Shown piece by piece: positions 13,855-33,432 of a stretch of DNA of 64,000 nt (positions are counted from its first letter, which is position 1; each line of letters opens with the position of its first letter). A program made the translations under genes and the position numbers. The stretch is from Pyropia yezoensis. Lineage: Eukaryota; Rhodophyta; Bangiophyceae; Bangiales; Bangiaceae. The notes beneath the pieces were generated by a model. The model was given only the letters and a program-made list of their open reading frames with translations, was not told the DNA's origin and ran no database searches. Where the stretch lies: contig CM020620.1 of the NCBI GenBank assembly GCA_009829735.1, forward strand, positions 22,666,020 through 22,730,019, in the 5' to 3' direction.

Positions 13855-14323
13855 TGTGGCAAAAACCACAAGCACACACGGCACCCAAGTTGGGGCGGTG
13901 TACCAGGGCTGCCTCCCGTGTCGGGGGAACCGGAAGAAGTGCAAGTCGCACACACTCTGTCCCTGTTGTGGGGCAAACCCCCCACGGACAAACAAGAAGA
14001 TGGTGTGTGGTCCAACAGTTTCTTGGTCGGGACGGGGACGCAGGGCCAAGCCCCGCTGTCCCTCCCCTTATCCCCCCAGGGTCCACTCAGAATCTCGCCA
14101 CTCAGAATCTCCCACCCCAGCACCTGCCCACCGGGCCACACGAAAATTCAAGACGATAAATGCAGAAAACCCTCAAATCCAAGTTGGATTTACTACTAAG
14201 CTAACTATCCCAAACTTAGGGAATATGGACCCAAATGCAGGGGGAGGAACGGATCAGGCTAGTGGCCTGCCGCCCCTTGCATGGCATGTGTTGCCCCCCT
14301 ACCTGGGGGTCAATACTGCCACA
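13855..14323 (-). repeat. 3' LTR of element 2
   Basis: 469 bp, TG...CA bounded, matching 22763-23231 with three substitutions. Left flank is AGTAT. Confidence 0.97.
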
Positions 14324-14336
14324 CTCCCCTCTCCTC
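14324..14336 (-). other. Polypurine tract of element 2
   Basis: The minus strand reads GAGGAGAGGGGAG directly next to the 3' LTR, the expected plus-strand primer site. Confidence 0.8.
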
Positions 14337-14661
14337 AGTTCCGACCGACCCGGTCGGCCCTGTGAGGGGGTGCGTAAACGCACGTCTCGGCGTTGGGGGC
14401 GCGACTTGCTGTCCCCCATCGAGTACGTAACACGGATGTGGAGGCGGTCACGTTGACCGCCCCTCTCCTCAAGCTTGCCCACTCGGCAGCTTGCTCTCCT
14501 CAGTTCACACTTCACCATCACCACCACCTCCCCTTCACCTTCCACTGGGCCGCCCCACGCTGGGGAGGCCACCCGTATACCCACGATCCGAGTCCCCCTC
14601 AACTCGAGGCGGGTCTCGTGCTGCGATAGCCAGAGCGTCTCTCCCCAACTTGGGGAGAGCC

Positions 14662-16587
14662 ATGGCGACTCCGGGAGTGGAGACGGACTCTCTTGACGAG
14701 CGCATGGAGGACACCTCCTACGGTGCAGCACCCGCCGGGACTTCCGGCGGGGGCTCCGCGATCGCTCCGGGGGATGGGACTCCCGCGTCACCCGGCTTTG
14801 GGTTGACGGCGGGGTCTCCCCCGGAGGCGGGACAAGTTGTCCCGCGTGAGGCCTTGGGGCGGTGGTTTTACCCCGCTTGGCCTCTTTATGAGGAGGGGTT
14901 GACTGTTCTTCGCTGTGGCCGACTTGGCGCAGCGATGGGCCGGGTATGGGACCGCCTACGGGAGAAGTATCCCCGTAGGGTCGGGTTCCCGGCCGGCTTC
15001 AGGACGGACCAGTTTGCCTTCCTGGACGACGAGGAGGTTGAAGACGTCCAACGTGCCAAGGTCATGGTGGACCGCGGGGGAACTATCCCGGGTCCCGGCG
15101 ACTTGCCGACCTTCACGTGGGACGCTGTGGCAACTCGCCCACCGTACCTCCACGAGGCCGATCCGCACACTCATCACTTTGATGTGCGGATGGAGAAAGA
15201 CTTCCGGCGAGGTCCCTACTTGGTGACCTCGGCTCAACTTGAGTTTCCTCAACAGTCTGCTGCCAGTAAGGAGCAGTACTATCCGAAGAAGCCCGAGTGG
15301 TGGCCTCAAGTTGAGGTCCCCTACGGGTTCCCGGCGTTGTTGCCCCGGTTGCTTGACCACTTCGGCTCCGTCATGTTGACGGCTGCCCCTGATCACCTGG
15401 TGTGGGCCATGTTGGCCACCCAGTGGCTCCTCGAGGTCATGTCGACCTGGGTGTCCTGTGTTCAGCGGCGGGGGATGCTCTGGCATCTCCCCCTCCGGCT
15501 CATCCAGGGTTTGGAACAGCTCACCCCTCAGCTAGTTGCTGAGGGGTGCTCATCAGGACAACTCACTCTACTTGAGGAGATGCTCCGGCTCCATAAGTTT
15601 ATCGAGTGGGAGAGCATTGAGCACAAGTTGCGCCGCCCCACTCGTGGGCCCAAGGACGATGGCGCACTTCGCCAGTTCGTGTGGGTCGCTCGTGAACTTC
15701 ACGACGGCCGTGTGGTCCTACGAGAGGGGTTGGGCATCGGGGACTACCCGTATGCCCCGGGGGTGGATCGCCACACTGCGCCACCCCCGGACAAGCCCAT
15801 AGTTATGGCCGTGCCGTCCTATGATGACCACATGACTCAACCCACTGCGGGAGCCCCAAGTCGGGGTCGCAGTTACACCCGGGTACCGCCACCTCGGCGG
15901 GCCCCTCCGCTTCCTCCTGTTCCTTTCCAACCTCACGGGAACATCCCGATCAGCGTGGCCGTGGAGTCTTCCACCCCGGTGTCCCCCAACTTGGGGGCCA
16001 CCCTCCTGACGGTATACCCCAAGTTGGTGTTGCCGCCCACGCCTCTAACCTCAGAGATGATGATCACCACGTTGGTGCGCACCATTTCCTGGTTGGCCGC
16101 GTCGACCGAAACCCTACAGAGTTCCGAGACTCCTCAACTTGAGGAGCGCGTTCGTACTACAGTAGCGACCGCGAGTTGCGAGTCGGTGGCGGAGTTTATG
16201 ACAGCCGAGTTGGCTCGTATTGGGGCTATTATGCCCCAGCCAGCCCCACTTGGGCGTGGCAAACGTCGCGCGAGCCGGGCATACTCGCCTCCTCGCCGTC
16301 GTCGCCGACACTCTCGGCGCTCTCCCTCCGTGTCGGAAGACGAGTTGTCTTACTCCGTCTCGGAGTCCTCTACCCCGTCGGAGACGGAGTCTGTCCAGCG
16401 TCTGCGTCGCAAACTTGCGCGCAAGACCAGGCAGAAGAGTGGCCACGGTCGGCGCCACTTGCGCGACCGTGAGGGGCGCGACGGTTCCGACTTGGAGCCG
16501 CCGCCCCCTCCAACGAGTGGAGACCGTTATCGGCGTGGGTCTCGCCGCTCGCCTCCACGTGGGGGCGAGGGCCGTGGAGTGGGATAG
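14662..16587 (+). CDS. Antisense gene of element 2, unknown protein with RS-rich tail
   Basis: 641 residues from the ATG at 14662, encoded opposite to gag-pol and ending 129 bp from the pol stop, tail to tail. No known domain recognised. It is homologous to the antisense protein of element 1; shared blocks include EVPYGFPALLPRLLDHFGSV (EVPCGFPARIPVLVAYFGSV in element 1), GMLWHLPLRLIQGLEQL and VVLREGLGIGDYPYAPGV. The C-terminal ~110 residues are rich in Arg and Ser (RRRRRHSRRSPSVSEDE, RRKLARKTRQKSGHGRR), like an RS or RNA-binding tail. Frame integrity over 1.9 kb and divergence under a conserved pattern argue for selection. Function is unknown: an accessory RNA-binding, structural or regulatory role is possible but unproven. 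Confidence 0.8.
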   Translation: MATPGVETDSLDERMEDTSYGAAPAGTSGGGSAIAPGDGTPASPGFGLTAGSPPEAGQVVPREALGRWFYPAWPLYEEGLTVLRCGRLGAAMGRVWDRLREKYPRRVGFPAGFRTDQFAFLDDEEVEDVQRAKVMVDRGGTIPGPGDLPTFTWDAVATRPPYLHEADPHTHHFDVRMEKDFRRGPYLVTSAQLEFPQQSAASKEQYYPKKPEWWPQVEVPYGFPALLPRLLDHFGSVMLTAAPDHLVWAMLATQWLLEVMSTWVSCVQRRGMLWHLPLRLIQGLEQLTPQLVAEGCSSGQLTLLEEMLRLHKFIEWESIEHKLRRPTRGPKDDGALRQFVWVARELHDGRVVLREGLGIGDYPYAPGVDRHTAPPPDKPIVMAVPSYDDHMTQPTAGAPSRGRSYTRVPPPRRAPPLPPVPFQPHGNIPISVAVESSTPVSPNLGATLLTVYPKLVLPPTPLTSEMMITTLVRTISWLAASTETLQSSETPQLEERVRTTVATASCESVAEFMTAELARIGAIMPQPAPLGRGKRRASRAYSPPRRRRRHSRRSPSVSEDELSYSVSESSTPSETESVQRLRRKLARKTRQKSGHGRRHLRDREGRDGSDLEPPPPPTSGDRYRRGSRRSPPRGGEGRGVG

Positions 16588-16716
16588 TCTAGCATGCGTG
16601 CCTAGTTGGCAGCTGCCCTTGTTGTGAGAGTGTGAGGGTTAGGGCTGTAGTTAAAAGCCACTCTGCGTACCACTTCGACTTGAAGCACTCTCGTGGCACT
16701 GTTGCTCGGCCTTCCC

Positions 16717-19700: not shown

Positions 19701-20700
19701 GGGGGGGAACACCCTCCATGTTCACATGGGGCCGAGGAGAGGTGGCCGACTTGGCTTGATGCTTCTCCTTTCCGGACTTCGGGTCGCTACTTGCGCCCGC
19801 GTTGAGGGTGACCGCTACTACCGGTCCCTCATGTTGGTCGATATAGCCGAACTTGGCTCCCGACTTGAAGTACTTGGGCGTCGGACTCAGGTTCATCACC
19901 TGGATCCTCCACGGGACTCCGGCTTTGGAGTCCATCGTGCCAAGGGCAACATGCACTTGGTGCTTGCGAGCAAGACGGGGGTTAGGGTGCACCAACCCGT
20001 TCCCCGAAAAATCAGTTACAACGTCAACGTGCGCCACCGAATTGGGGGGCAACGTGACTTTGCGGGCTAAACGCAGGGTAGCAGTAAACCCTTCCCTCAC
20101 AGAGCAAACAGGCTTCGACTGTGAGACTGTCACAGGAGCCACAGACTTTCCCTTACCAAGGATGGGGATAGTCTCCCCATTCATCAACTTGACCCAGTAC
20201 TCGGGGCCACAGATCAAAGGCACTTGTGTTACGACATAAGGGGTACCCAGAAGCAGGGGTACCGATATATTCTCAACTACGCCATAGGTCACGTCGACCT
20301 CATGGGTCCCCAACCTAGTTGGTAGGGTCACGGCACCAACGATGGGAAGTACCCCACCATTGATGTCAATCATATGGTCAGCTTTGGACCTCCAGCGTTG
20401 GAGCTTCACCTCCTTTGGTAATAGCGACTTGCGTATCAAGGAGGCTCCTGACCCGGTATCAAGTACGATACGGGTACAGCATGCACGGCCGGGGGCAAGT
20501 TGCACCCGTCCAGCCACCTGGAAGTTCTCACCCGTCAGCACCGCGATGACCCGACGTGGGTTTACGTTCTTGGGGAGTCCTACCCGAGGTGGGCGGACTC
20601 CCTTAGGTCGCCGCAGTATCCGGCACGGTTGGTTCGTCCTCCTGGCCCACTTGGCCGAGGCTGCCGTTGTGAGCTTCGGACGACCAGCCCCAACGGTCAT
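16717..20700 (-). CDS. pol: Element 2 Pol polyprotein (PR-RT-RH-IN-chromodomain)
   Basis: 1,327 residues in one frame. The retropepsin has DTGSGAS with Asp81. RT has YLDD at 524-527, preceded by RFCIDYRKLN and followed by VEYLGHVVRPG. RNase H has LDVDARYDQLG. The integrase has an HHCC finger (HNAPTGGH...CTSC) and a D,D-35-E core at Asp965, Asp1025 and Glu1061. A chromodomain lies at about 1265-1315 (LMLRVRWFGYKAKDDTWEYVEDLP), which places it with the chromoviruses. The ATG overlaps the gag stop as ATGA, in the -1 frame relative to gag. All catalytic residues checked are present. Confidence 0.96.
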   Translation of the reverse strand: MTVGAGRPKLTTAASAKWARRTNQPCRILRRPKGVRPPRVGLPKNVNPRRVIAVLTGENFQVAGRVQLAPGRACCTRIVLDTGSGASLIRKSLLPKEVKLQRWRSKADHMIDINGGVLPIVGAVTLPTRLGTHEVDVTYGVVENISVPLLLGTPYVVTQVPLICGPEYWVKLMNGETIPILGKGKSVAPVTVSQSKPVCSVREGFTATLRLARKVTLPPNSVAHVDVVTDFSGNGLVHPNPRLARKHQVHVALGTMDSKAGVPWRIQVMNLSPTPKYFKSGAKFGYIDQHEGPVVAVTLNAGASSDPKSGKEKHQAKSATSPRPHVNMEGVPPRLRVQVERLLDQYHKLWDGQLGLMRATQHRIELKPGAPPIRQQPYRGGPRSRALVKEQVARMEALDVIEASNAEWASPVVIVPKVDGTPRFCIDYRKLNESTVKDSYPLPRMDDCLDSLGEANVFSTLDCNAGYWQIPIAPEDRHKTTFTCHCGTYQCKRLPFGLCNAPATFQRAMDMILAGVRWQICLVYLDDIIVFSRSPEEHIGHLGQVFKLLADAGVSLKASKCHLFTQEVEYLGHVVRPGRLSVNEKNLRAIRKAQYPRTQTQMRSFLGMCNVYRRFTKGFAKVAKPLNELVSSTLPKNLPPPSRVEQESFETLRDLLLKPPILAIPRFGGHYILDVDARYDQLGCVLLQQQPDKEYLPVGYFSKGLNSAEKNYGVTELEGLAVVWAVTSLRHYLEGEKFLIRCDHRALQFIFKTDCTNTRLNRWRVRLAPFNFDIEYRPGRQHALADGLSRVPTEGLDTNPVDEDIPIVGVVTRSGQALNPEAPGSKRYLPLSLDEVVKAQAEDPFCKSQRDILDTVVETRFFLGDDGLLMRRGVFQGTEKLVVPAFLKDSILEREHNAPTGGHLGSSKLYQTLRTRYYWPSMVVDIYSWVAACTSCAQNRLMERRPSTAMLLFPAKEPFAALAMDILGPLPVTEEGNQYLLVICDRFTKLTRAIPLAEITAMSVVSAFLDHWVAAYGIPDSTLSDNGPQFASVLFQGVLDMLGVKANYATPYHPQTNGQVERFNKTIVRQLRHYVSEHVKTWDQYISILTTAYNSQVHSSTGEVPLAFVTPRRVRSIAVRRSLPTGEGSGSTPTPTESKAEFAARLEHLIPKVRAEMDKAQKRYKRTFDKKVRNAKHVPEQGDWVLVHSHTPTGGKLVFQTKGPYQVLRTDGRRFTIESDDGVRTVNGQDVVKVAPPPAGDPAWARALESWRLPSLPAAKQGPQEHVFDKFIDHGWDEDTDRLMLRVRWFGYKAKDDTWEYVEDLPAEKVRSYCARNEIDPNSPPST

Positions 20701-22643
20701 TCGTTTCCCGCCGACTTGGCGTCCGAATCTGAGGGCGGGGAGGAAGACGACGAGTCCGAGGACGACGTGTCCGCCTCCTCCGCCGAGGGTGTGGCGACCG
20801 CGACGACCGGTCGAGACCCACCCTCGCGGCGTGAACGTACTTCGCTCGTAGCCGACTTCTTACTCGCATTCCTAACAAGTTGTTGGATGCGTTTACTCAA
20901 CTTGGGGCAGTCATATGCCCAGTGTCCATCGGAGTTGCAGTTCCAACACCGATGGTCAGTTCCCGGAGGGGTCTTCCCAACTGGGGAAGACGAAGAGGTA
21001 CCCTGGGAAGTTCCCACGGCAGCTACCACCCTCTCCTTGCGGATTCGGCGTGCCTCTCTCAACTCTCTGGCCTGGCGCGCCTCCTCCCGTTCCTTGGCCA
21101 ACTCGGCCTGACGCTCCTGGCGTTGTTCCTCCCGCAACTTGCGGTAGGCCTCGCCTCTGCGATAGGCGAACCTGGCCAACTCGGCCAGGGTCGCCCGGGC
21201 AGTGTTATGCTCCCGGGTCTCCATCCGGACTGACCAATGGAGTCCCTCCACAAACCGACTCTTCACCACAGCTTGTGGATGAAGAAACCCACAAAGATTG
21301 TTGAGCTTACGGACTCGCTCCGCAAAGGACAACTCGTCCTCCGCCTCTTCCTGATGGGCTTGCGTAAACTCCTCGACTTGAGAAGCCAACGCTGCCTCAT
21401 CAACCATGGCTCTCAACAACCAGTTGACGAGCTCCAAATAGGACGTCACCTCCCCAGCGCCTCCACTTGAGGAGCTGGGCATGACGGACATAAGTTCTGT
21501 CCGTAGGTCGCCCTTCGTAAACTCCTGTAGCATGTAAAAAGCCATGCCTTCACTTATGGCATTGTCGTCACAGGCTTTTGTGAAACGACGTAGGAACTCA
21601 AAGACACGGAGGGGGGGAGTTCCATCCCACTCCGCTCTGTGCCCAAAAGAATGAAGTGCATTCTTCTTGGCACGGCCCATAGCTCGGGCCTGGTCAGGAC
21701 CATACGCCACCGACTTGTTGTTGAGAGCGTAGGTCTCACAGTCAAAGATCCGCTGGTAGACCGGGTTGGCTGCCTGAATCTTGGGCGGCACCTCACGTTG
21801 AGGGAACAGCCGCTGTGGCACTGGGGTAAGTCCACCCTCAGTGCCTGTAGTCTGGTACGGCGAGCTTGGTGTAGCCGCCGGCGTTTCCGAGGGGAACTCC
21901 CCCGTGAAGGGCGTACGCCCCACCGCGTATGGTGTGGCTCCCTCATTGGGAGTCACAGGTGTCGCCCCCAGTTCGGGGCGACCCGAGATAGGCGTGGGGA
22001 GGGATTCCCCCTGCGCCTGTGGGCTCGAAAGCCCCAATCCGGTCTGGACATTCAGGCCATCTGGCAAACTCGCTACAATCTGATTCAGAATAGTATTCGT
22101 CATCGTGACCACCAGGTCCGGCAAAGTCTGCCGCAACACATTGGTCGCCTCCCGACGGACAGTTTCCGCGAGGAGTGGATTGACGACTCCAGTTGAGTCT
22201 CGGTCCGCCTCCGGGAGTCCACCTGAGGGGTAACCACGTTCCTCAGGGGTCTCAACCGGGGGCATGGGCGCGAGCCCATCGCCGACCAACGGAGGTCCAC
22301 CGTCCTCCGAAAGCCTAGTTGGCGACGACTCCAAGCCAAAGTTGGCTCCAACCCGAGTGGAACCCGCGGGGACAGTCCTCACCCCTTGGGACGTTCCCGT
22401 TGAGTATACCACGCGGTGGCCAGACTTCGGCCCACCCACATCAGAAGTGTCGCCCGAGTGAACTCCCGACTGAGTCGGGGTGGCCTGTTGCCCGCCCGTA
22501 CTTCCAGTCCTGCTGGCTTGAGGGACCTCTAGTCCCTCTGCGACCCCAGGTAAACCCACCTGTGTCTCACCAGTATTCAAAGGCACTGAAGTACGTGCGT
22601 CACCCGTGTACTCCCCGGACGACGGGGGGTCCGAGCTAGCCAT
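20697..22643 (-). CDS. gag: Element 2 Gag
   Basis: 648 residues from the ATG at 22643 (MASSDPPSS), about 100 bp after the PBS. The N-terminal third is disordered. The capsid-like core has WDGTPPLRVFEFLRRFTKACDDN and EVTSYLELVNWLLRAMVDE. A charged coiled-coil stretch (RQERQAELAKEREEARQAREL) leads to one CCHC zinc knuckle starting at Cys566 (CWNCNSDGHWAYDC). The acidic Ser-rich tail ends at a TGA overlapping the pol ATG. Confidence 0.93.
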   Translation of the reverse strand: MASSDPPSSGEYTGDARTSVPLNTGETQVGLPGVAEGLEVPQASRTGSTGGQQATPTQSGVHSGDTSDVGGPKSGHRVVYSTGTSQGVRTVPAGSTRVGANFGLESSPTRLSEDGGPPLVGDGLAPMPPVETPEERGYPSGGLPEADRDSTGVVNPLLAETVRREATNVLRQTLPDLVVTMTNTILNQIVASLPDGLNVQTGLGLSSPQAQGESLPTPISGRPELGATPVTPNEGATPYAVGRTPFTGEFPSETPAATPSSPYQTTGTEGGLTPVPQRLFPQREVPPKIQAANPVYQRIFDCETYALNNKSVAYGPDQARAMGRAKKNALHSFGHRAEWDGTPPLRVFEFLRRFTKACDDNAISEGMAFYMLQEFTKGDLRTELMSVMPSSSSGGAGEVTSYLELVNWLLRAMVDEAALASQVEEFTQAHQEEAEDELSFAERVRKLNNLCGFLHPQAVVKSRFVEGLHWSVRMETREHNTARATLAELARFAYRRGEAYRKLREEQRQERQAELAKEREEARQARELREARRIRKERVVAAVGTSQGTSSSSPVGKTPPGTDHRCWNCNSDGHWAYDCPKLSKRIQQLVRNASKKSATSEVRSRREGGSRPVVAVATPSAEEADTSSSDSSSSSPPSDSDAKSAGNE

Positions 22644-22740
22644 GTTGGCTGACGATCCGTATGACACGGTCCAAGACCACCGTTCCTCTGAGACAGAGGG
22701 CCCCCTACACCCGGGTGCACCCGGAGGTAAAGTTTACCTC

Positions 22741-22760
22741 TGTCCCCTGCTGCTCCACCA
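22741..22760 (-). other. Primer binding site of element 2
   Basis: Two bases after the 5' LTR the minus strand reads TGGTGGAGCAGCAGGGGA, starting with the TGG expected to pair with a tRNA CCA end. Element 1 has a closely similar site, which supports the call. The tRNA is not identified. Confidence 0.7.
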
Positions 22761-22762
22761 AA

Positions 22763-23231
22763 TGTGGCAAAAACCACAAGCACACACGGCACCCAAGTTG
22801 GGGCGGTGTGCCAGGGCTGCCTCCCGTGTCGGGGGAACCGGAAGAAGTGCAAGTCGCACACACTCTGTCCCTGTTGTGGGGCAAACCCCCCACGGACAAA
22901 CAAGAAGATGGTGTGTGGTCCAACAGTTTCTTGGTCGGGACGGGGACGCAGGGCCAAGCCCCGCTGTCCCTCCCCTTATCCCCCCAGGGTCCACTCAGAA
23001 TCTCGCCACTCAGAATCTCCCACCCCAGCACCTGCCCACCGGGCCACACGAAAATTCAAGACGATAAATGCAGAAAACCCTCAAATCCAAGTTGGATTTA
23101 CTACTAAGCTAACTATCCCAAACTTAGGGAATATGGACCCCAATGCAGGGGGAGGAACGGATCAGGCTAGTGGCCTGCCGCCCCTTGCATGGCACGTGTT
23201 GCCCCCCTACCTGGGGGTCAATACTGCCACA
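22763..23231 (-). repeat. 5' LTR of element 2
   Basis: 469 bp, the partner of 13855-14323. It is followed on the plus strand by the AGTAT target duplication. Confidence 0.97.
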
Positions 23232-23566
23232 AGTATCAGACTTGCAACTACCTATGGGACACGTGAGGCTCGTAGGATGCGAAGGGTCGCGCGTACCATG
23301 AAACACTCTTTTGCTTGGTACCCTAATTTCTCTGGCAAGGAGGCCCTGAAAGCGTTCACGTGGCTCCGCAAACTGGCAAAAGCGTGTAACGACAACGCGG
23401 TATTCGAGGGCATGGCCCTTTATGCGATCCCACATTTCCTCTCTGGTGACGCGGAACTGCGGTACACACGGGCCCTTCCGGACTCCTCCAGCGCGTCTGG
23501 TGGGTCCTCGATCACAAGTTACCCAGAGGCCATTAACTGGTTCCTAGAGAGGTACGCAGAGCCCCG

Positions 23567-24105
23567 TGTGGGAGATTGGGCCGGAATTCGGTACCAATAC
23601 TTTGGAGATTCGGGTCAAGTGGACCTGACCGGAAGTCGAAGTTCACCCGACCCACGATGGTGAAACTTCTGACTTCTGGACGGAAATTCGACCAGGACTT
23701 CCGACATACTAGAGCAGGGTAATGCTGCTGGTATTTGTTTCTTGGGATTTTTGCACGGGAGCCAGACGGATTTCTACGCTTTGAGTGCTTTGCATGTGGA
23801 GTGATATGATTGGTTTATTTGAGGGTTCATTTTCTGAGTGTTTTGAGGGGTTGCGTGAGTGTGTGAGGAGGGTTGATAAGGAGGGACAGCAAGGCGGGGT
23901 GGGCCCACCTTGGCTGGGGAAGGAAGTAAACACCGTCTGGCTCCGACACATCTTGTTCGTGCCTTGGTGAGTGGACCCGCTCACCACACGCAAGTCGCGT
24001 GTTCGGCGGTCTGGACGTGCTTGCTTCCGGTGTCCCAAGTTGAGATATCGGCAATACTCCTCTTCCTTCCCTGACTCGGGGTTGGTGGTTGGGAGTACTG
24101 CTACA
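23567..24105 (+). repeat. 5' LTR of element 1
   Basis: 539 bp, TG...CA, with 99.6% identity to the 3' copy (two substitutions counted by eye). Confidence 0.97.
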
Positions 24106-24107
24106 GT

Positions 24108-24127
24108 TGGTGGATCAGCGGGGGAGA
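24108..24127 (+). other. Primer binding site of element 1
   Basis: TGGTGGATCAGCGGGGGA begins two bases after the LTR. It differs from the element 2 site at two of 18 positions. Confidence 0.7.
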
Positions 24128-24422
24128 GGATATCGACTTTGGTACCTCCCTTGACCGGAGACGGGACCAAGTTGGCCCCTCTCCCCCTTCGGCACCGAGA
24201 CTTCCGGTGACACGATCGACTCGCCTACGTTCCGAGCGTTCGCTGGGTGACGAGGTTGGCCACCGTGAGTCTTGGTGGGAGACCCGGAGTTTCGGGAAAC
24301 CTCACCGCCTTCCTTGAGGCAGGTGGAGGGGTGGAACGTGCTCTAGGAACTCCCTAGCTGACGATCCCCGACTCTGGACACCGTTTGGTCGTTTTGGTTG
24401 ACTCCACGTGACTCTTGTGGAG

Positions 24423-26186
24423 ATGGCTGGTGAGGGAGACCCCCCCATTGCGCCGAGTGTACCTGGGGAGGGGGAGCGTAGTCCTCCCCCGACGGGCGGA
24501 GTACCACCCAGGCCGGGCAGTGCGGATGTGGTGGGTCCAGAGGTTGGACCCCGACGGCGGTCGGCCAGGTTCCTTCCCAGGCCGTCCCCGGAAGAGACGG
24601 GCGGAGTTCGCCCTTCTCCGGTGGGAGCGCCGAGCCAGCGTCAGGCTCCGGCAACCCCTTCGGGGAGTGACGACACTCACTTCGGCATGGGACCGCCGAC
24701 CGGCAGAGGTGACGGGACGGGGAGTTCCGTACCCCGGGTTGGTGGGTCCGCGCCACGACTGGTGCCGGAAGGACCGGGTGGGAGCTCGAGTCAAGCTCCA
24801 CCTGGGTCATCCGGTATCGTGGATGACTCGGTGATGACTGCCATCGCACAAGTCGTGCGAGAGGAGGTGGGGAAGGCGTTGAAGGGGAATACCCCTCCGC
24901 CTGAGCAGGCCTCGAGGCGTCAGAAACGACAGGAGATTCGACGTACTCTCCGTCGTGAGGTGGACTCAGAGTCTGAGTCCTCTACAAGTGGCCAGTCGGG
25001 TGAAGAGGATCTTACCCGACGTGGTCGTGTGACTCACACGGACCGTCTTGGGACTAGAGTCGTCCCAGGAAAGATCGTGGTGAATAATCCATTGTTCAAG
25101 GATGTCTTCGACTGTGAGACATATGGGTTGGTCAACAAGTCGTTGACCTACTCGAATAGTCAGGCCCGTACCCTGGGCCGGCGCAAGAAACACGTTGCGC
25201 AATCCTTCGGGGTCCGTTCAGAATGGGACGGGACACCACCCCTGAAGGTCTTCCAGTTTTTGCGGAAGTTCGCAAAAGCCTGCGATGACAATGATGTCTC
25301 TGAAGCTGAAGCGTTTTTCATGCTTCAGGACTTCACCAAGGAGCCACTCCGCTCCGAGGTGATGAACGTCATGCCAAGTCGGCATGGTGGGAATCCGGGT
25401 GAGGTGACTTCCTACCTGGAGTTGGTTAATTGGATCCTTCGTCTTCACGCAGACGAGGCTTCCTTGGCTGTGCAGGTTGAAGAATTCAACCGCGCCACCC
25501 AGAGTAAGGGTGAAGAGGAACGGGAGTTCGCTGAACGACTCCGTCAGCTGAACGTCCTCTGTGGATTCCTATATCCCCAAGGAGTCATTAAGGGACGCTT
25601 TGTGGAGGGTGTCCACCGAGCAGCTCGAGCGACTGCGCGAGAGCGTAATACTCCGACCATGACTCTGGCGGAGTTGGCACGCATCGCCCAGACTAAGGGT
25701 GATGAGTACCGCTGGCTCGTGTCTGAGCAGCGGAAGGAACGAGAGAAAGAAGTTAAGGGAGTGGAAGCAAGTCGCTTCCGCAGAACTGCAAGGGTGCCTT
25801 CCTACACGCGGACGTACCCTGCAGTACCTTCGTCCTCAACTCGAGAGATGGAAGGTATGGTGGCCGCTATCCCTGATAAGTCACAGGGAAAAGCGGGGCT
25901 ATCGGCGTCAATGAGTGATCGGCCGTGTTGGCAGTGTTCCAAGTCGGGACACTGGGCAGCCCAATGCCCCACTCTGGACGTTCGACTGAGAGCCCTGTTG
26001 GCTCGTATTGGGAAACTCGGTATTCCGAGGACTGATTCGGATACCCGGCCGCACACCACACGTGTGACGGCCATGACTCAACCTAAGTCAGAGGATGAGT
26101 CCACGCTTGAGAAGGGGGAAACCTCTTCCCCCAGCTCAAGTGGCAAGGATACTCCATCATCCGAGTCGGATGAGGGAAACGCCTAG
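24423..26186 (+). CDS. gag: Element 1 Gag
   Basis: 587 residues from the ATG at 24423 (MAGEGDPPI). The N-terminal region is disordered and Pro/Gly-rich. The core is homologous to element 2 Gag (VFDCETYGLVNKSLTY, WDGTPPLKVFQFLRKFAKAC, GEVTSYLELVNWILRLHADE). One CCHC knuckle lies at Cys502-Cys505-His510-Cys515 (CWQCSKSGHWAAQC). It ends with an acidic Ser-rich tail. The pol frame is -1 relative to gag and is open across the gag stop. Confidence 0.93.
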   Translation: MAGEGDPPIAPSVPGEGERSPPPTGGVPPRPGSADVVGPEVGPRRRSARFLPRPSPEETGGVRPSPVGAPSQRQAPATPSGSDDTHFGMGPPTGRGDGTGSSVPRVGGSAPRLVPEGPGGSSSQAPPGSSGIVDDSVMTAIAQVVREEVGKALKGNTPPPEQASRRQKRQEIRRTLRREVDSESESSTSGQSGEEDLTRRGRVTHTDRLGTRVVPGKIVVNNPLFKDVFDCETYGLVNKSLTYSNSQARTLGRRKKHVAQSFGVRSEWDGTPPLKVFQFLRKFAKACDDNDVSEAEAFFMLQDFTKEPLRSEVMNVMPSRHGGNPGEVTSYLELVNWILRLHADEASLAVQVEEFNRATQSKGEEEREFAERLRQLNVLCGFLYPQGVIKGRFVEGVHRAARATARERNTPTMTLAELARIAQTKGDEYRWLVSEQRKEREKEVKGVEASRFRRTARVPSYTRTYPAVPSSSTREMEGMVAAIPDKSQGKAGLSASMSDRPCWQCSKSGHWAAQCPTLDVRLRALLARIGKLGIPRTDSDTRPHTTRVTAMTQPKSEDESTLEKGETSSPSSSGKDTPSSESDEGNA

Positions 26187-26224
26187 CCGCTGGGACCAAG
26201 ACTGACCCAAAGGCTCCAGCGGTA

Positions 26225-27073
26225 ATGAAGCGGGTTGCTTCACACTCACCGACCCATGGGAGAGTGAAGGTCCTGACTCGACCTCGAGGGGTGAGGCCTA
26301 GAGACAAAGTCTCTCCTCAGAAGCACGACCCGAGTCGGATTGTGTCAGTGCTGGTAGGGAGTAACTACCAGGTCGCAGCTCGACTCTGGCTGCAGGATGG
26401 ATATGAGTTTACCTCTCGTGTCATAGTCGACACAGGCTCTGCTGCCTCTCTCATTAGGCAAGACTTATTGCCAGAGGGGACGGATGTGAGTCCCGCCGGC
26501 TCACCCGAGTGGCGTATGTTTGATGTCAATGGGGGACTCCTCCCCATTGTTGGGTCTATTGCATTGACTGTTTGCATTGGGTTGTACCAGACGCAGGTGA
26601 ACTTTGGAGTAGTCTCCAATATGTCAGTCCCCGTACTCCTGGGAACTGACTATCTGGACCTCCATGTCCCGGCCGTCTGTGGACCGGAAGGGGTAATCCG
26701 AATGCGTAATGGAGAGACTGTCCCCATATTGCGTAAAGGGAGGACTGTTTCCCCTACGACTCATCAACCTAGGGAAAACTCTCCCAAGGGTGGAGGCTCT
26801 ACGACCCATGTACGAGTATGTCAGGGTACGGTAGTCCCGCCCCGATCAAGGACCTTTGTGCGAGTACGCACACGGTTTCGAGGGAATGGACTCGTTTCCC
26901 CCGTGGACCGAGTCTATCATACTCACCAAGTGCAAGTTGCATGGGGCCCCATGACTTGTGGGGATGACCAAACTTGGTGGGTGGAGGTCCTCAACACGTC
27001 GGAGGAACCTCGACGACTCCCCGGAGGCATGAAGATTGCGTCGATACCTTTGAGGGGAATGTCGTTGCTGTGA
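26225..27073 (+). CDS. Element 1 Pol part 1: aspartic protease
   Basis: The first ATG in this frame is 38 bp after the gag stop. Retropepsin motif VDTGSAASLIR (Asp codon at 26429-26431) is followed by NGGLLPIVGSIAL and VPVLLGTDYLDL. It corresponds to the first ~330 residues of element 2 Pol. The frame terminates at 27071-27073 just after the region where homology passes to the -1 frame. Expression may use a -1 shift from gag or re-initiation. Confidence 0.85.
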   Translation: MKRVASHSPTHGRVKVLTRPRGVRPRDKVSPQKHDPSRIVSVLVGSNYQVAARLWLQDGYEFTSRVIVDTGSAASLIRQDLLPEGTDVSPAGSPEWRMFDVNGGLLPIVGSIALTVCIGLYQTQVNFGVVSNMSVPVLLGTDYLDLHVPAVCGPEGVIRMRNGETVPILRKGRTVSPTTHQPRENSPKGGGSTTHVRVCQGTVVPPRSRTFVRVRTRFRGNGLVSPVDRVYHTHQVQVAWGPMTCGDDQTWWVEVLNTSEEPRRLPGGMKIASIPLRGMSLL

Positions 27074-30000
27074 CTCAACAGCAATGGAAGGATATTGGAA
27101 CGGCAGGCTCTGCCGACCAATCGAGTTCATCGACGGCTAAGTCGCCGACGGTACATCGGGAGAACATCCCAGAGTGTCTACATGGACGACTGGATGAGTT
27201 AATCCAGAAGCATCACAAGTTGTGGAATGGTGACCTTGGGCTCATCAAGGCCACCGAACACAGAATCGTGTTGAAGCCAGGGGCTAGGCCAGTTCGCTTG
27301 AGTCCCTACCGTATGGGACCAGACTCACGGGAACTCACCCGAGAGCAGGTCCAACGGATGCAAGACATGGGTGTCATTGAGCCTTGCTCAAGTGAGTGGG
27401 CCAGTCCCATAGTCTTGGTGCCCAAGTCAGACGGCACGATGCGGTTCTGCATCGATTATCGTAAGCTAAACGAGCGGACGGTAAGGGATAGTTACCCCTT
27501 ACCCCGTATGGACGATTGCCTCGACTCACTCGGTGAGGCACAGTACTTTTCCACGTTGGACTGCAACGCGGGGTACTGGCAGATACCCATCCGCAAGGAG
27601 GACAGACACTTGACCACCTTTACGTGTCACTGTGGAGTTTATCAGTGTACACGGCTCCCTTTCGGGCTTTGCAATGCACCTGCGACTTTCCAGCGTGCTA
27701 TTGACTTGATACTTGCCGGAGTCAAGTGGCAGATCGCCCTGGTGTATCTGGACGATATCATTGTGTTCTCCGGGACTGCCGAAGAACACCTGTCCCACTT
27801 GGACAGAGTGTTTACCCTGTTGGGTGAAGCAGGAGTAACACTCAAACCTACGAAGTGTCACCTCTTTAGTAATGAGGTGGAGTACCTCGGCCATATAGTC
27901 CGGCCAGGTCGCATTCTGGTCAATGAGAAGAACCTCATGGCCATCCGTCGGGCGAAGTTCCCCCAGACGCAGACTCAACTCAGGAGCTTCCTGGGTATGT
28001 GTAACGTATACAGACGCTTTGTGGCGAACTATGCCAAAGTGTCTGCACCGTTGAACCACTTGGTAAGTTCCAAGATGCCCAAGCGCTTGGATGCTCCCAA
28101 ACCCCCGGAGCAAGAAGCGTTTGATAGGTTGCGAGAACTCCTCTGCAACCCACCGGTGTTAGCGATCCCCAGACCGGGGGCTCACTACATTGTTGATGTG
28201 GACGCAAGTCACGACCAACTCGGTTGTTGCTTACTCCAACAACAGCCTTCGGGGGAGTATTTACCCGTTGGCTACTTTAGCAAAGGACTCTCACCGGCCC
28301 AGAAGAACTATTCTGTGACGGAGGTAGAGGGCCTTGGCGGAGTATGGGCAGTCTCCATGCTACGGCCATACATCGAAGGAAGGAAGTTCCTCATTCGATG
28401 TGACCACAAGGCTCTGAAGTGGATACTCACCACTACAGCCTGTACGAATAACCGACTCAATCGATGGCGACTCTGCCTCGCTGAGTTCGATTATGATGTT
28501 GAGTATCGGCCGGGCCCAAAGCATGCGGTTGCAGACGCGTTGTCTCGCATACCGACGGATGGGAAAGACTCTTCCCCCATCCCTGAGGAACTCCCTCATG
28601 TGGCAGTGACCACTCGCTCCGGAACTGTCCTCGACCCGAGGATGCCTGGCATGGCCAAGCTATTACCCGTGTCTCTGGATGAGTTTGTCCAGGCACAGGA
28701 GAGCGACAAACTTTGTCGACGACTCAGAAAGGAGCTCGACCAGGCTCAACCGACTCGGTTCTTCCTGAATGACAACGGCATACTCTGCCGTAAGGGATAT
28801 ACCCAGGGGGACAAGCAAGTCGTCGTCCCCAAGGAGTTACGCAAGAGTATCCTCCAACGGGAGCACTCCTCACCGTTGGGTGGACACCCAGGGTCTACGA
28901 GGATGTATCAGACCCTACGCAAGAAGTACTATTGGCCATCACTCGTGGCTGATGTGTACGGGTATGTAGCCGCATGCGCGACTTGCGCAAAGAATAGACT
29001 CATGGAGTCCCGGCAGACTTCTTCCATGAGACTCTTTCCTGCAACAGAGCCGTTTGCAGCGATAGCAGTGGACTTACTCGGTCCACTACCACGAACACCA
29101 GAAGGATATGAGTACCTTCTGGTGATGTGTGATCGCTTTACTAAGCTCACACGGGTATCCCCACTCAAGGATATCACAGCCGTGGACGTTCTGAGTGAGT
29201 TACTCGACGTCTGGGTTGCCAGTTATGGCATCCCCGACTCTATCCTTTCGGATAACGGACCACAGTTTGCTTCCGTCCTGTATCAGGGAGTCATGAAGAT
29301 GTTGGGGGTGCAGACGAATTTCGCAACCCCTTACCACCCCCAGACTAATGGGCAGGTGGAACGATTCAACAGGACTCTAGTGCGCCAGTTGCGTCACTAT
29401 GTGCATGATCATGTAGTCACATGGGCTCGTTATGCGTCACTACTCGTGACAGCATACAACTCCCAGGTACACAGTAGTTCGGGAGAGGCACCGTTTGCCT
29501 TCGTCTGCCCCCGACGACTTCCGTCAGTAGCTGTGGAGCGTCTCACCCAGACAGAGGGTGAGACTTCGACTCAAACACCGAGTCAGGCGAAAGCCTCCCT
29601 ACTCCAGAGACTGGAGGAGATGATATTCCTTCTCCGGGCTACTATGGAGAAGGCCCAAGCTCGTTACAAGAGGTACTTCGATGTCCGAGTCAGACATCGT
29701 CGCGATCCGCTCCGAGTTGGAGATTGGATTTATGTCAACTCCCACGACAATAAGGGAGGGAAATTGGTCTTCAAAACTCTGGGACCATATCACATCCTTA
29801 AGACGGATGGCCGGCGGTTAACCATCGAGAGTGATGATGGTATCCGGACGATAAATGGGAATCACGCGACTCGCGCACCCGAGCCCCCAGAGGGAGATCC
29901 CGCTTGGGAAAGGGCCTTGCAAGCATGGAAAGTCCCATCCTTGCCGACCTCCTCGAATAAACCGTTGGAGGGGGTATTCGACAAGTTTGTCAGACACGGA

Positions 30001-30210
30001 TACGATAAGTCGGGGCGACTCATGCTCCGAGTCAGGTGGTTCGGGTATGGACCAACTTCCGACACATGGGAGTTTGTAGAGGACCTACCAGTAGAGAAGG
30101 TCCGTAGATACTGCCAGGCTGCGGGCATATCTATACGCCGACGTAGCACTCGTACGTCGGGGGATGAAGTCCCTGCTCCAAGCCAGAGCAGAGCGGCAAG
30201 CCAACCATGA
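26974..30210 (+). CDS. Element 1 Pol part 2: RT, RNase H, integrase, chromodomain
   Basis: The frame is open from at least 26974; homology to element 2 Pol begins near 27045 (TFEGNVVAV against HEGPVVAV). RT YLDD is at 27745-27756. RNase H DVDASHDQLG follows. The integrase HHCC finger includes HSSPLGGHPGSTR and CATCAKNR, and the D,D-35-E Asp and Glu codons are at 29251 and 29359. A C-terminal chromodomain (LMLRVRWFGYGPTSDTWEFVEDLP) is present. No ATG opens this frame, so the protein must come from frameshifting or the frame has been broken. Confidence 0.9.
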   Translation: MVGGGPQHVGGTSTTPRRHEDCVDTFEGNVVAVTQQQWKDIGTAGSADQSSSSTAKSPTVHRENIPECLHGRLDELIQKHHKLWNGDLGLIKATEHRIVLKPGARPVRLSPYRMGPDSRELTREQVQRMQDMGVIEPCSSEWASPIVLVPKSDGTMRFCIDYRKLNERTVRDSYPLPRMDDCLDSLGEAQYFSTLDCNAGYWQIPIRKEDRHLTTFTCHCGVYQCTRLPFGLCNAPATFQRAIDLILAGVKWQIALVYLDDIIVFSGTAEEHLSHLDRVFTLLGEAGVTLKPTKCHLFSNEVEYLGHIVRPGRILVNEKNLMAIRRAKFPQTQTQLRSFLGMCNVYRRFVANYAKVSAPLNHLVSSKMPKRLDAPKPPEQEAFDRLRELLCNPPVLAIPRPGAHYIVDVDASHDQLGCCLLQQQPSGEYLPVGYFSKGLSPAQKNYSVTEVEGLGGVWAVSMLRPYIEGRKFLIRCDHKALKWILTTTACTNNRLNRWRLCLAEFDYDVEYRPGPKHAVADALSRIPTDGKDSSPIPEELPHVAVTTRSGTVLDPRMPGMAKLLPVSLDEFVQAQESDKLCRRLRKELDQAQPTRFFLNDNGILCRKGYTQGDKQVVVPKELRKSILQREHSSPLGGHPGSTRMYQTLRKKYYWPSLVADVYGYVAACATCAKNRLMESRQTSSMRLFPATEPFAAIAVDLLGPLPRTPEGYEYLLVMCDRFTKLTRVSPLKDITAVDVLSELLDVWVASYGIPDSILSDNGPQFASVLYQGVMKMLGVQTNFATPYHPQTNGQVERFNRTLVRQLRHYVHDHVVTWARYASLLVTAYNSQVHSSSGEAPFAFVCPRRLPSVAVERLTQTEGETSTQTPSQAKASLLQRLEEMIFLLRATMEKAQARYKRYFDVRVRHRRDPLRVGDWIYVNSHDNKGGKLVFKTLGPYHILKTDGRRLTIESDDGIRTINGNHATRAPEPPEGDPAWERALQAWKVPSLPTSSNKPLEGVFDKFVRHGYDKSGRLMLRVRWFGYGPTSDTWEFVEDLPVEKVRRYCQAAGISIRRRSTRTSGDEVPAPSQSRAASQP

Positions 30211-30260
30211 GTACAAACACATACCATGGCTCTTCAAAGATTCTCTACTAACAAAGCCGA

Positions 30261-32255
30261 CTATGGCACAATACAAAACGAGAAGAACACACACCACTCT
30301 TCTCGCCAAGAAAAGAACAAGTCGTTCGACCGCTGACTCTTGCGTTCCATATGCCCACCCCCACCACTATAGGGACCGCCCGACCACGAACCCCCAGGGT
30401 CGTAGGCCGGTAGCGGAGGGGCGTAACCCACTCGGGAGGGCCCCGGAGTGGAAGCACTGGGAGGGGCCCGCCGACTCGCGGACCCATCCCCGTCGTAAGA
30501 AAGATGTCCGGAGGTACTCCCTCCGTGACGCGGAAGCTGCTGCTGAGTCGACAGCAGCCGTTGGACAAACTCATGTCCAACCGCGAGGCGAGTGACCTCA
30601 GCTGCCAATGACTGTCGCGCCGTGGCTGAGTCGCCCGACGCGAGGAAGTGACTGACACGCCGGGTGACCCAAGCCAACGTGTCAAGGGAGGCCACGAGTG
30701 AGGCCTCCACCGTGGCGTCATACATGATGGCTCCCAAGTTGGGAAGCATCTCGCCGACGCCACGCGCAATCGGCATGGGTACCGGAGTTCGGACCCGTAG
30801 CGAACCCAACGCCACGTCGGGGAAGGGCTCGAGGAACTGGAAGGGTGGAGCCTGAGTCGGCTCCACACCCCCCGAGGTCGGAGTCGCGACCCGCGGGGAA
30901 GACGTCGGCACAGCTCGCCCGCGGCTTCGAGGGGCTCCTCGATGAGCACCACGACGAGTCGTCGCCGATGACGTCGCCCACCCAGAGCCAGGGGGCGACG
31001 TAGAGGGAGTAACCCCCTCTGCGTAGGGAAGGGAAGAGTCCCCCAACCCCTCACGCAGGAGCAGCTGCCCCTGCATCAGAGTATGGGTGACATGGACGAA
31101 CTCCCAGGGTGGCTCACTCTCCAACCCTGGCTCTGAACGCTTGTTGCGGCGGAGGAAGGGGTCCAGCTGCGCCCAATCGAGTCGATTGTGCAGGGTGACC
31201 ATACCCTTGAGGAGGAACGGAGCCAGGTCCCCCGCGCCCAAGGCTAACCAGTGGAAGCCAAGGGGTTCCATACCCTCCACCAGAGCCGGTGGGAGGTGCC
31301 ACAGGTAACCCCGATGGACTACATCGGAGTACCAGCTCCGAGCCACCACAACCACCCAGTGCGTGGCGAGGTAGGCGAAGACCCGGTTACCCTCCGAGCT
31401 GGAGCGTAGCACGGAGCCAAAGTAGGCAACAAGGACGGGGATCCGAGCCGGAAACCCGCAAGGTACCTCCACTGTCTCCCACCACCCTGGGAGAAGAGGG
31501 TACTGGTGCTCACGCTCCTCCAGAGGTACGTGGGTGAACTCCACCCGCGACCCGTGGATGAGGAAGCCCGAGGAGCCCCGGAGTCGGAACTCCTCTCGCA
31601 CCACACCATGTTGGGTGTGGGCGTCCTCTCCGCCCAGGTAGGGACGAGGAAGGGCACACCACTCGGTAGACACCACCGCGTGGGTGTCGTCGATCTCCAC
31701 GTCGCCCGACCCCATGGCGAGGGAGGCTGACAACGCCTGGACTTCAGGCGCGTCCGCCAGGCAGAGTAGCGCTGGTAGGTCGCAGACCACCCCATCAGGT
31801 AGAGTCACCTGGTTGGGGTACCGACGAGTCCGGCGGTACCATACGTCGGTCCGCCGTGGCTCGGGGATGATCAAGTAGACATCCTTGAGCTTGCAGTCGG
31901 GAAGCTCCCCGACTGACTTGGGAGGCGCCCAGGCTCGGGGCCCCATAGGAGGACGGGGCCGCGGCGGGAGTAGCAGCCGCGACTCAGGAAGGCGGGGGAT
32001 GGGAGTCACATCCCCTTCCGCCACCGGGTTGGAAGACCCATCCCCCGGTGGGACCACAGCCGAGGGGGCAGTAGGAGGTGATGGAGCGGGGACGGCTGAG
32101 GCGGCCGCCTCCGACCCTCGCCCGGGACGAGTCGTCTCCATGGCCGACCCCCGGCTGAGAGACTCCTCAGTCCCGAGGGCCTCCTCTCCCGCCCGTCGCT
32201 TGTCCGACAGAGACGTCGGAGACGGGGATAAAGGCCGACTCGGCTCACCCGCCAT
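30261..32255 (-). CDS. Antisense gene of element 1, unknown protein
   Basis: 664 residues from the ATG at 32255, opposite to gag-pol; its stop is about 50 bp from the pol stop. No known domain. Collinear similarity to the element 2 antisense protein runs through the middle: GWWETVEVPCGFPARIPVLV, YLWHLPPALVEGMEPL, QLLLREGLGDSSLPYAEGV and a helical block around LVASLDTLAWVTRRVSHFL. The tail lacks the long Arg/Ser stretch of element 2 and is Gly/Ser/Pro-rich. Conservation of position, orientation and sequence in two diverged elements suggests a real accessory gene. Confidence 0.8.
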   Translation of the reverse strand: MAGEPSRPLSPSPTSLSDKRRAGEEALGTEESLSRGSAMETTRPGRGSEAAASAVPAPSPPTAPSAVVPPGDGSSNPVAEGDVTPIPRLPESRLLLPPRPRPPMGPRAWAPPKSVGELPDCKLKDVYLIIPEPRRTDVWYRRTRRYPNQVTLPDGVVCDLPALLCLADAPEVQALSASLAMGSGDVEIDDTHAVVSTEWCALPRPYLGGEDAHTQHGVVREEFRLRGSSGFLIHGSRVEFTHVPLEEREHQYPLLPGWWETVEVPCGFPARIPVLVAYFGSVLRSSSEGNRVFAYLATHWVVVVARSWYSDVVHRGYLWHLPPALVEGMEPLGFHWLALGAGDLAPFLLKGMVTLHNRLDWAQLDPFLRRNKRSEPGLESEPPWEFVHVTHTLMQGQLLLREGLGDSSLPYAEGVTPSTSPPGSGWATSSATTRRGAHRGAPRSRGRAVPTSSPRVATPTSGGVEPTQAPPFQFLEPFPDVALGSLRVRTPVPMPIARGVGEMLPNLGAIMYDATVEASLVASLDTLAWVTRRVSHFLASGDSATARQSLAAEVTRLAVGHEFVQRLLSTQQQLPRHGGSTSGHLSYDGDGSASRRAPPSASTPGPSRVGYAPPLPAYDPGGSWSGGPYSGGGGHMERKSQRSNDLFFSWREEWCVFFSFCIVP

Positions 32256-32288: not shown

Positions 32289-32985
32289 GCACGGGGGGGG
32301 GATACGACCCGCTCCCCCTCCTTGACCGCCACCAGGTTAACTCAACCTGGGCCTTGAACAATAGGGGGGGGACACGACCCACGCCCCCCACCGACAGCGA
32401 CGTCGCCCAACACAAGGGCAGGGCGGGGAAGACACAACCGCGCCGACGGAGACGACAAGGGGGGGGGGGACACGACCCACGCCCCCCAACGAAGACAAAC
32501 GGGGACGACACAACCCCGCCAACGAGGACACAGGGGGGGGACACGACCCACACCCCCCAACGACAACAAAGAAGCCCGACACAAGGGGCAGCGCGGGGAA
32601 AACACAACCCCGCCGACGAAGAGCAACGAGGGGGGGACACAACCCACGCCCCCACCGACAACGAAGACGCCCGACACAGGGGCGGGGCGGGGAAGACACC
32701 ACCCCAAGCGGCGACACAAACCGCACGGCGGGAAGGGACAGACCCGCCGACGCGAGGGAGCAGCGGCGGGAAGACACACACCCGCCCGCACACACGAAGG
32801 GGAGAGAAGACCCCGCGCCGGCGGCCGAGTACCACCGCCGGCGACCGAGTGCAACACCCCCAACTCGGGGTGCGCACACCCCTCAACCCTGACTAGAAGG
32901 GGGGGGAAAGGAGTGAGGAACACCCCGCAGAGAGCCAGCTGGGGGTGGATCGAGTTCTAAGGGGGGGACACAACCCGACCCCCCG
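32289..32985 (+). repeat. Degenerate tandem repeats in element 1
   Basis: Units contain a G run followed by GACACGACCCACGCCCCCC and an ACGAAGACA-like spacer. Cores occur near 32289, 32363, 32457, 32531, 32627 and 32957 (spacing 74-96 bp in the core array). It lies between the antisense gene start and the PPT, so it would be upstream of, and might regulate, the antisense gene. Confidence 0.75.
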
Positions 32986-33419: not shown

Positions 33420-33432
33420 GAGAAGGGGGAAA
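33420..33432 (+). other. Polypurine tract of element 1
   Basis: GAGAAGGGGGAAA directly precedes the 3' LTR. Confidence 0.85.

What the first reader, a model, noticed from the sequence alone, without database searches (positions are those of the whole stretch)
14662..32255. Conserved antisense gene carried by two diverged chromoviruses
Both complete Ty3/gypsy elements carry, between pol and the PPT, a 641-664 codon gene on the opposite strand (14662-16587 and 30261-32255). The proteins align through several blocks (EVPYGFPALLPRLLDHFGSV / EVPCGFPARIPVLVAYFGSV; LWHLPLRLIQGLEQL / LWHLPPALVEGMEPL; LREGLGIGDYPYAPGV / LREGLGDSSLPYAEGV). Position, orientation and frame are conserved although the elements differ in LTRs and much of gag-pol. 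Plant Tat/Ogre Ty3 elements are known to carry extra genes, sometimes antisense, but this protein resembles nothing I know. It could be an accessory gene with its own promoter.
Basis: partly seen in the sequence, partly recalled or inferred. Interest (0 to 1): 0.9.

Follow-up and report, generated by a model that had tools for sequence, protein, structure and literature searches.

The report
Backwards gene kept by seaweed retrotransposons
Two distantly related families of jumping genes in a red alga (most likely nori) both carry the same extra, backwards-written gene of unknown protein family, and mutation patterns show it is kept working as a protein, so these elements probably need it to spread.

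Summary
Both complete Ty3/gypsy elements carry, between pol and the PPT, an antisense ORF of about 640 codons. The two proteins are homologous (29.6% over 453 columns, E ~1e-46). The host looks like a Bangiales red alga. Its genome holds 103 (B) and 694 (A) places with an aORF marker.

The frame is selected as protein: variants shared between copies have omega 0.12 (A) and 0.27 (B), singletons 0.69 and 0.73. Three diverged intact copies give 0.05-0.24. The gag-pol strand below both ORFs has 10-23 stops in each frame.

The arrangement matches known antisense accessory ORFs of plant Grande/RIRE2/Retand and fungal Boty. The protein has no Pfam match, and the plant TRP28 model finds nothing in this genome. 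Expression, promoter and function could not be tested; both structure models failed.

Verdict: a real accessory gene, a new variant of a known kind, in a host lineage for which my paper searches listed no such report. A regulatory role is inference.

The parts
13855..14323 (-). 3' LTR of element A (469 bp)
   Evidence: self-BLAST 99.4% to 22763-23231, TG...CA ends, TSD AGTAT
14324..14336 (-). PPT of element A (purine run next to the 3' LTR)
   Evidence: read from the sequence
14662..16587 (+). antisense ORF of element A, 641 aa
16717..20700 (-). pol of element A: protease (weak match), RT, RNase H, integrase, chromodomain-like C-terminus
   Evidence: Pfam
20697..22667 (-). gag of element A with CCHC zinc knuckle
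   Evidence: Pfam
22763..23231 (-). 5' LTR of element A
23567..24105 (+). 5' LTR of element B (539 bp)
   Evidence: self-BLAST 99.6% to 33433-33971, TSD CCCCG
24408..26186 (+). gag of element B with CCHC zinc knuckle (just below Pfam cut-off)
26225..27073 (+). protease part of element B pol; lies in another frame than RT in this copy, other copies differ there
   Evidence: 41.7% to A pol; alignment to other copies
26974..30210 (+). RT, RNase H, integrase, chromodomain-like C-terminus of element B
   Evidence: Pfam
30339..32255 (-). antisense ORF of element B at family length (638 aa and stop position); this copy reads on to 30261 (664 aa)
32363..32705 (.). short diverged tandem repeats with G-runs, between the aORF start and the 3' LTR of B
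   Evidence: self-BLAST, sequence
33420..33432 (+). PPT of element B
   Evidence: read from the sequence
33433..33971 (+). 3' LTR of element B

Best explanation
Each element carries a true accessory gene, encoded on the strand opposite gag-pol and inherited from a common ancestor of families A and B. SHOWN: the frame is selected as protein; the two proteins are homologous; the gene sits tail-to-tail with pol (83 of 100 listed B places, 9 of 10 sampled A copies). INFERRED: it is transcribed separately, from an antisense promoter in the 3' LTR or in the stretch between aORF and LTR (338 bp in A, 1177 bp in B), because the genomic RNA cannot encode it. Its protein has a conserved core of about 250-300 residues rich in invariant Trp, His and Pro, then a proline-rich linker, and in A a strongly basic Arg/Ser tail. 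It most likely acts as a regulator or chaperone of the element's own cycle (transcription, RNA export or packaging, or nuclear import), as proposed for plant antisense ORFs such as Grande GENE23 and, in retroviruses, reported for HBZ. Confidence: coding and selected about 0.97; separate antisense mRNA about 0.85; nuclear regulatory role about 0.45.
For: Shared variants: A 8 nonsynonymous / 31 synonymous (15 copies), B 19 / 30 (40 copies); 0 of 5000 permutations as low. L068 vs A: 9 / 56, omega 0.05; L070 vs A 0.23; L055 vs B: 78 / 109, omega 0.24. pol gives the same shared-low, singleton-high pattern. Sense strand closed in all frames. Presence; in all 20 six-kb stretches fetched, pol lies next to the aORF on the other strand. 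The named database relatives are four Pyropia vietnamensis proteins at 44-52% identity. A's last 211 residues have net charge +15 with several Arg runs. Analogues: PMC7264820 (parts 1-2 of 3), PMC11963269 (passages).
Against: No RNA data. No recognised domain. AlphaFold2 failed twice (mean pLDDT 33.4 and 43.7), so no fold supports any function. The basic tail is weak in B (+6). One close A pair, L062, gives omega 0.73 (7 synonymous, 15 nonsynonymous). Of 10 A copies chosen without regard to frame only 3 have an intact full-length frame, and A has fewer aORF than chromodomain marker places (694 against 1084), so many copies may have lost or never had it.
Confidence: 0.62

Rival explanations
1. 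The antisense protein counters host silencing: a fast-evolving anti-silencing factor, as VANC is for the VANDAL21 DNA transposon of Arabidopsis (recalled).
For: The aORF is the least conserved gene between A and B (30% against 42-64% for gag, protease and RT-to-chromodomain), as expected for a factor in a conflict, yet is under constraint within families. Family A is very abundant (1084 chromodomain markers).
Against: No similarity to any family in Pfam. Fast divergence is common to many accessory proteins. No methylation or small-RNA data. The frame shows omega below 1, not above.
Confidence: 0.2
2. The function lies in the antisense RNA, for example copy-number control as with Ty1 antisense RNAs, and the open frame is incidental.
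For: Antisense RNAs that inhibit Ty1 are known (cited in PMC4007536, passage). An antisense transcript over the 3' part of the genomic RNA could form dsRNA.
Against: Protein-level constraint in the antisense frame: frames 2 and 3 of the same strand and sense frames 1 and 3 show none. Sense frame 2 looks constrained (0.35) because its third positions coincide with the aORF's; it holds 23 (A) and 15 (B) stops. The proteins are homologous although the DNA of A and B shows no BLASTN match over the aORF.
Confidence: 0.06
3. A captured host gene, carried along in antisense orientation.
For: Retroelements do capture host genes; antisense capture is conceivable.
Against: In all 20 six-kb stretches fetched the aORF lies next to pol; no Pfam domain; constraint across many transposition events. 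Searches of the genome score only the best candidates, so a single diverged host homologue could be hidden below the repeats.
Confidence: 0.07
4. An env-like or a second gag-like structural protein.
For: Located where env sits; low-confidence models of the core are mostly helical, as capsid is.
Against: Antisense, no hydrophobic segment of transmembrane strength (maximum 19-residue Kyte-Doolittle 1.23 and 1.38), no profile similarity to the elements' own gag (hhalign probability 0.2%; only two gag sequences, so weak).
Confidence: 0.04
5. Chance or artefact: long antisense frame because the region is GC-rich and copies are young.
For: Copies are about 98% alike, so few stops are expected anyway, and the intact counts come from best-scoring lists.
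Against: Synonymous excess with permutation control, and omega 0.05-0.24 at dS 0.12-0.25; homology between A and B at protein level.
Confidence: 0.01

Closest known systems
Retand / RIRE2 / Grande (plant) antisense aORF between pol and 3' LTR
   Same: Position and orientation; long pol-to-LTR region, often with tandem repeats, as in B; function unknown. Grande GENE23 is reported nuclear and transcribed from its own promoter (PMC7264820, parts 1-2 of 3 read; Gomez-Orte 2013 itself not read).
   Different: Retand is a non-chromovirus lineage of flowering plants; 97% of its clusters encode TRP28 (PF04195) there (PMC11963269, passages). PF04195 has no match in this genome, though that search had no positive control over the cut-off.
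Boty-like elements of Botrytis with the antisense gene brtn
   Same: gag-pol with a CHROMO domain and the extra gene brtn (PMC4227169, passages), which the cited title calls antisense; also in PMC7264820.
   Different: Fungal host; BRTN sequence not available here, so homology of the proteins was not tested. Zhao 2011 not read, only cited.
Retroviral antisense proteins (HTLV-1 HBZ)
   Same: Antisense gene of a retroelement coding for a nuclear protein with a role in the virus cycle (passage in PMC11963269).
   Different: HBZ is much smaller (recalled); no sequence relation shown.
Algal chromoviruses (e.g. Chlamyvir)
   Same: Ty3/gypsy with chromodomain in algae (PMC6317226, passages); one abstract says chromoviruses occur even in red algae (PMC3605345, start of abstract in a listing).
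   Different: No antisense gene mentioned in the passages seen. PMC3350952 (passages) reported no retrotransposon chromodomain in the red algae it examined, for Porphyra yezoensis from ESTs only.

Membership tests
Ty3/gypsy chromovirus | paired LTRs with TG...CA and 5-bp target duplication | tested here: met
   A and B
Ty3/gypsy chromovirus | gag, then protease, RT, RNase H, integrase in this order | tested here: met
   protease in A only a weak match (E 0.057), protease in B by its 42% identity to A
Ty3/gypsy chromovirus | chromodomain at the integrase C-terminus | tested here: inconclusive
   PF00385 at the C-terminus of both, E 0.0015 and 0.0028, below the curated cut-off
Ty3/gypsy chromovirus | RT phylogeny within chromoviruses | not tested
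   no reference set was at hand
Plant Tat/Retand antisense aORF | antisense ORF between pol and 3' LTR | tested here: met
Plant Tat/Retand antisense aORF | TRP28 domain (PF04195) | tested here: not met
   no Pfam match for the two aORF proteins or the 7 members of A1, none in the genome at E <= 10 (of the 14 control genomes one rang, below the cut-off, so sensitivity is not shown); very remote homology not excluded
Plant Tat/Retand antisense aORF | non-chromovirus pol | tested here: inconclusive
   chromodomain-like C-terminus speaks against it, below the cut-off
Boty/brtn-like antisense gene | antisense gene in an element whose gag-pol has a chromodomain | tested here: inconclusive
   antisense gene met; chromodomain below cut-off
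Boty/brtn-like antisense gene | homology to BRTN | not testable with these tools
   no BRTN sequence was at hand
env-like third ORF | sense orientation and transmembrane segment | tested here: not met
   antisense; Kyte-Doolittle maxima 1.23 and 1.38
Protein-coding gene | purifying selection in the claimed frame | tested here: met
Gene with its own promoter | antisense transcript | not testable with these tools
   no RNA data

The most novel reading that the evidence does not exclude
Red-algal chromoviruses evolved, independently of flowering-plant Tat elements and fungal Boty, a new family of antisense-encoded accessory proteins that switch the element between expression and replication or shield it from silencing. 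This would mean that antisense accessory genes in the pol-3' LTR gap are a recurrent solution of LTR retrotransposons across kingdoms, like antisense genes of retroviruses.
Probability: 0.3. Interest if true: 0.8.

Novelty: new variant of a known kind. Interest (0 to 1): 0.62.

Why it matters
In the papers seen, antisense accessory ORFs of LTR retrotransposons are described from flowering plants and from Boty of fungi, and their roles are open. Here is a case in a third, very distant lineage with clean evidence that the frame is selected as protein: two families with about a hundred and several hundred marked copies in one compact, chromosome-scale genome, where shared against singleton variants separate selection in source elements from decay. 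It suggests that the arrangement arose more than once or is very old, and it makes the question testable: strand-specific RNA data from this alga would show whether and when the gene is expressed.

Tried and rejected
Pfam with the two aORF proteins and with all 7 members of alignment A1: no family. PDB sequences with the A1 profile: two chance matches at E 2.3. PF04195 against the genome: none; its control genomes include no match over the cut-off. I recalled a loose resemblance of the GFPA...YFGS...LW core to plant TRP28 proteins; no call supports it. Gag origin by profile comparison: none, at low power. Structure: two AlphaFold2 jobs, 7-row full length (pLDDT 33.4) and 17-row core (43.7); both too poor, so no fold search was made. 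Intactness counts as evidence: dropped as the main argument, since those lists are ranked by score (A 58 of 64 matches without stops; 60 of 69 matches of the relative P0009 without stops), while A copies picked by chromodomain show much decay (3 of 10 intact). Not used for selection: A vs B omega (0.44) and L060 vs B (0.32 over 344 codons), both with dS above 1.4. For B the tool listed 100 of 123 chromodomain places and 100 of 103 aORF places; I entered all 100 chromodomain places and the 88 aORF places on C1, C2 and the part of C3 they cover. At least 3 of the 17 misses have an aORF match by protein search (next to C1:6927849, C1:23646558, C2:8507179). For A the same comparison was not made, because only the first 100 exact matches of each marker are listed.
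Full report
What is there. The window lies in a 107.5 Mb assembly of 11 contigs, three of them large (43.6, 34.3 and 29.4 Mb). The only relatives of the antisense protein that carry a name are four hypothetical proteins of Pyropia vietnamensis, a red alga of the Bangiales. Size and contig number fit Neopyropia (Pyropia) yezoensis, nori, as I recall it; no call names the host. The window holds two complete Ty3/gypsy elements. A (minus strand, 13855-23231, 9.4 kb) has 469-bp LTRs that differ at 3 positions and a target duplication AGTAT. B (plus strand, 23567-33971, 10.4 kb) has 539-bp LTRs that differ at 2 positions and a duplication CCCCG. The stretch between them encodes part of a third, related gag, into which B is inserted and which A borders. 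Gag and pol have the usual domains, with a chromodomain-like end of the integrase that stays below Pfam's cut-off.

The antisense frame. Between pol and the polypurine tract each element has an ORF on the opposite strand: A 14662-16587, 641 aa; B 30261-32255, 664 aa in this copy but 638 aa in the family, since 19 of 20 fetched loci have a stop at codon 639. It lies tail-to-tail with pol, 129 bases apart in A and, at family length, 128 in B. The proteins align at 29.6% over 453 columns, E ~1e-46 (1e-45). In the alignment of B, A and five database relatives (29% identity to B for A, 35-59% for the others) 44 columns are invariant, 40 of them in residues 123-368 of B. Across 10 relatives, columns with letters in at least 8 keep, among others, D211, H216, R220, E222, WW258-259, P265, GFPA267-270, W300, W308 and LWHL318-321 (B numbering).

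Is it coding? Three tests say yes. (1) Variants among copies, with a permutation that keeps base and CpG context: those shared by two or more copies are strongly synonymous, A 8 nonsynonymous to 31 synonymous (expected 26.5 to 12.5; omega 0.12; 15 copies), B 19 to 30 (expected 34.2 to 14.8; omega 0.27; 40 copies), with 0 of 5000 permutations as low. Singletons, mostly mutations after insertion, are much less constrained: 53 to 30 (0.69, P 0.07) and 124 to 76 (0.73, P 0.015). pol shows the same contrast by the simpler count: shared 0.09 (integrase end, 40 copies) and 0.03 (RT region, 15 copies), singletons 0.46 and 0.56, against 0.24 and 0.61 for the B aORF in that call. So the aORF is constrained, less tightly than pol. 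(2) Diverged copies: L055 against B, dS 0.245, dN 0.058, omega 0.24, full-length and open; L068 against A, 56 synonymous and 9 nonsynonymous changes, omega 0.05; L070 against A, omega 0.23; but the close pair L062 against A, 7 and 15, omega 0.73. (3) Frame control: the other two frames of the strand and sense frames 1 and 3 show no constraint. Sense frame 2 appears constrained (0.35, 0.32) because its third positions are the aORF's third positions, but it carries 23 (A) and 15 (B) stops, and every sense frame under A and B carries 10 to 23.

How general is it in the genome? The protein search scored 67 of 2814 first-look candidates for B and 64 of 15210 for A. A 36-base marker in the B chromodomain is found at 123 places and one in the B aORF at 103 (up to 3 mismatches; no match of the reversed control). 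Of the 100 chromodomain places listed, 83 have the aORF marker within 1.5 kb, 73 of them at exactly 371 bp; at least three of the other 17 have an aORF by protein match. For A the counts are 1084 chromodomain and 694 aORF places; the difference was not resolved. Ten A copies taken by their chromodomain marker, and lacking an exact aORF marker in the list, were read: 9 carry aORF sequence, 3 with a full open frame, 6 with indels, stops or truncation, and 1 breaks off just after pol. So the gene belongs to both families, and dead copies decay as expected. The intact counts from ranked lists (58 of 64 for A; 60 of 69 matches of P0009) are biased and are not my argument.

What might it do? Neither protein has a Pfam match, a PDB sequence match, or detectable similarity to the elements' own gag (low power). 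Neither has a transmembrane-like segment, so an env role is unlikely. A has a basic C-terminal part (net +15 in the last 211 residues, with Arg runs), B only weakly (+6); that would suit nuclear or RNA binding but is not conserved in detail. AlphaFold2 gave mean pLDDT 33 and 44, so I ran no fold search. The gene cannot be read from the genomic RNA and needs its own antisense transcript; the interval from start codon to 3' LTR is 338 bases in A and 1177 in B, with G-run repeats in B. I infer a promoter there or in the LTR. A regulator of the element's own cycle is the likeliest role, by analogy and by mode of evolution: constrained in each family but the most divergent gene between families (30% against 42-64%). 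An anti-silencing factor is the main rival.

What is known. Antisense ORFs between pol and the 3' LTR are described in maize Grande, rice RIRE2, Silene Retand and bean PvRetro13, and in Boty of Botrytis; functions are unknown, and Grande's protein is reported as nuclear and transcribed from its own promoter (PMC7264820, parts 1 and 2 of 3 read). Retand is a non-chromovirus lineage; 97% of its clusters have antisense ORFs with TRP28, a domain said to occur only in flowering plants (PMC11963269, passages). Boty-like elements combine a gag-pol with a CHROMO domain and the gene brtn (PMC4227169, passages), so an antisense gene in a chromovirus-like element is not new as such. PF04195 finds nothing in this genome. 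My ten answered paper searches showed no report of such a gene in red algae among the rows listed; they cover open-licence full texts, and most listings were capped. An older survey found no retrotransposon chromodomain in the red algae it looked at (PMC3350952, passages), while another abstract says that chromoviruses occur in red algae (PMC3605345, start of abstract in the listing).

Verdict. It is a new variant of a known kind: antisense accessory gene, unrecognised protein family, new host lineage. Expression and function remain open.

Noticed in passing
window 1923-5978 (-): 1352-codon ORF with a Hint module at its C-terminal end (PF01079, E 1e-20); it overlaps repeats of about 600-640 bp spacing at about 2540-4730 that also give repeated plus-strand ORFs.
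   Followed up: partly
window 8904-9498 and 10198-10792: Inverted repeat with 595-bp arms, 98% complementary, 699 bp apart; possibly a DNA transposon or fold-back element.
   Followed up: no
window 23235-23561: Part of a third, related gag (31% and 40% to gag of B and A) between the two elements; reading of the sequence after B (33972 on) suggests that it continues there, not tested.
   Followed up: partly
window 34495-34819: Stretch 88-90% identical to part of the LTR of element A, possibly a solo LTR or an LTR of a sister family.
   Followed up: no
genome G000: Family A has 1084 chromodomain-marker places in a 107.5 Mb genome; if each were full length (9.4 kb) they would make up nearly a tenth of it, an upper bound.
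   Followed up: partly
L056-L059: B-type aORFs whose open frame matches the family over its first 420-480 codons and then departs from it; recombination, insertion or frame change, not resolved.
   Followed up: no
L023, L029, L031, L032, L034, L036, L039: B copies with an aORF but only part of pol matched within the 6-kb stretch fetched; may be insertions, deletions or non-autonomous derivatives that keep the antisense gene.
   Followed up: no
window 45847-48870 (+), 41054-42562 (-), 56830-58839 (-): Likely host genes: RecQ-type helicase, semialdehyde dehydrogenase, Myb-domain protein.
   Followed up: partly
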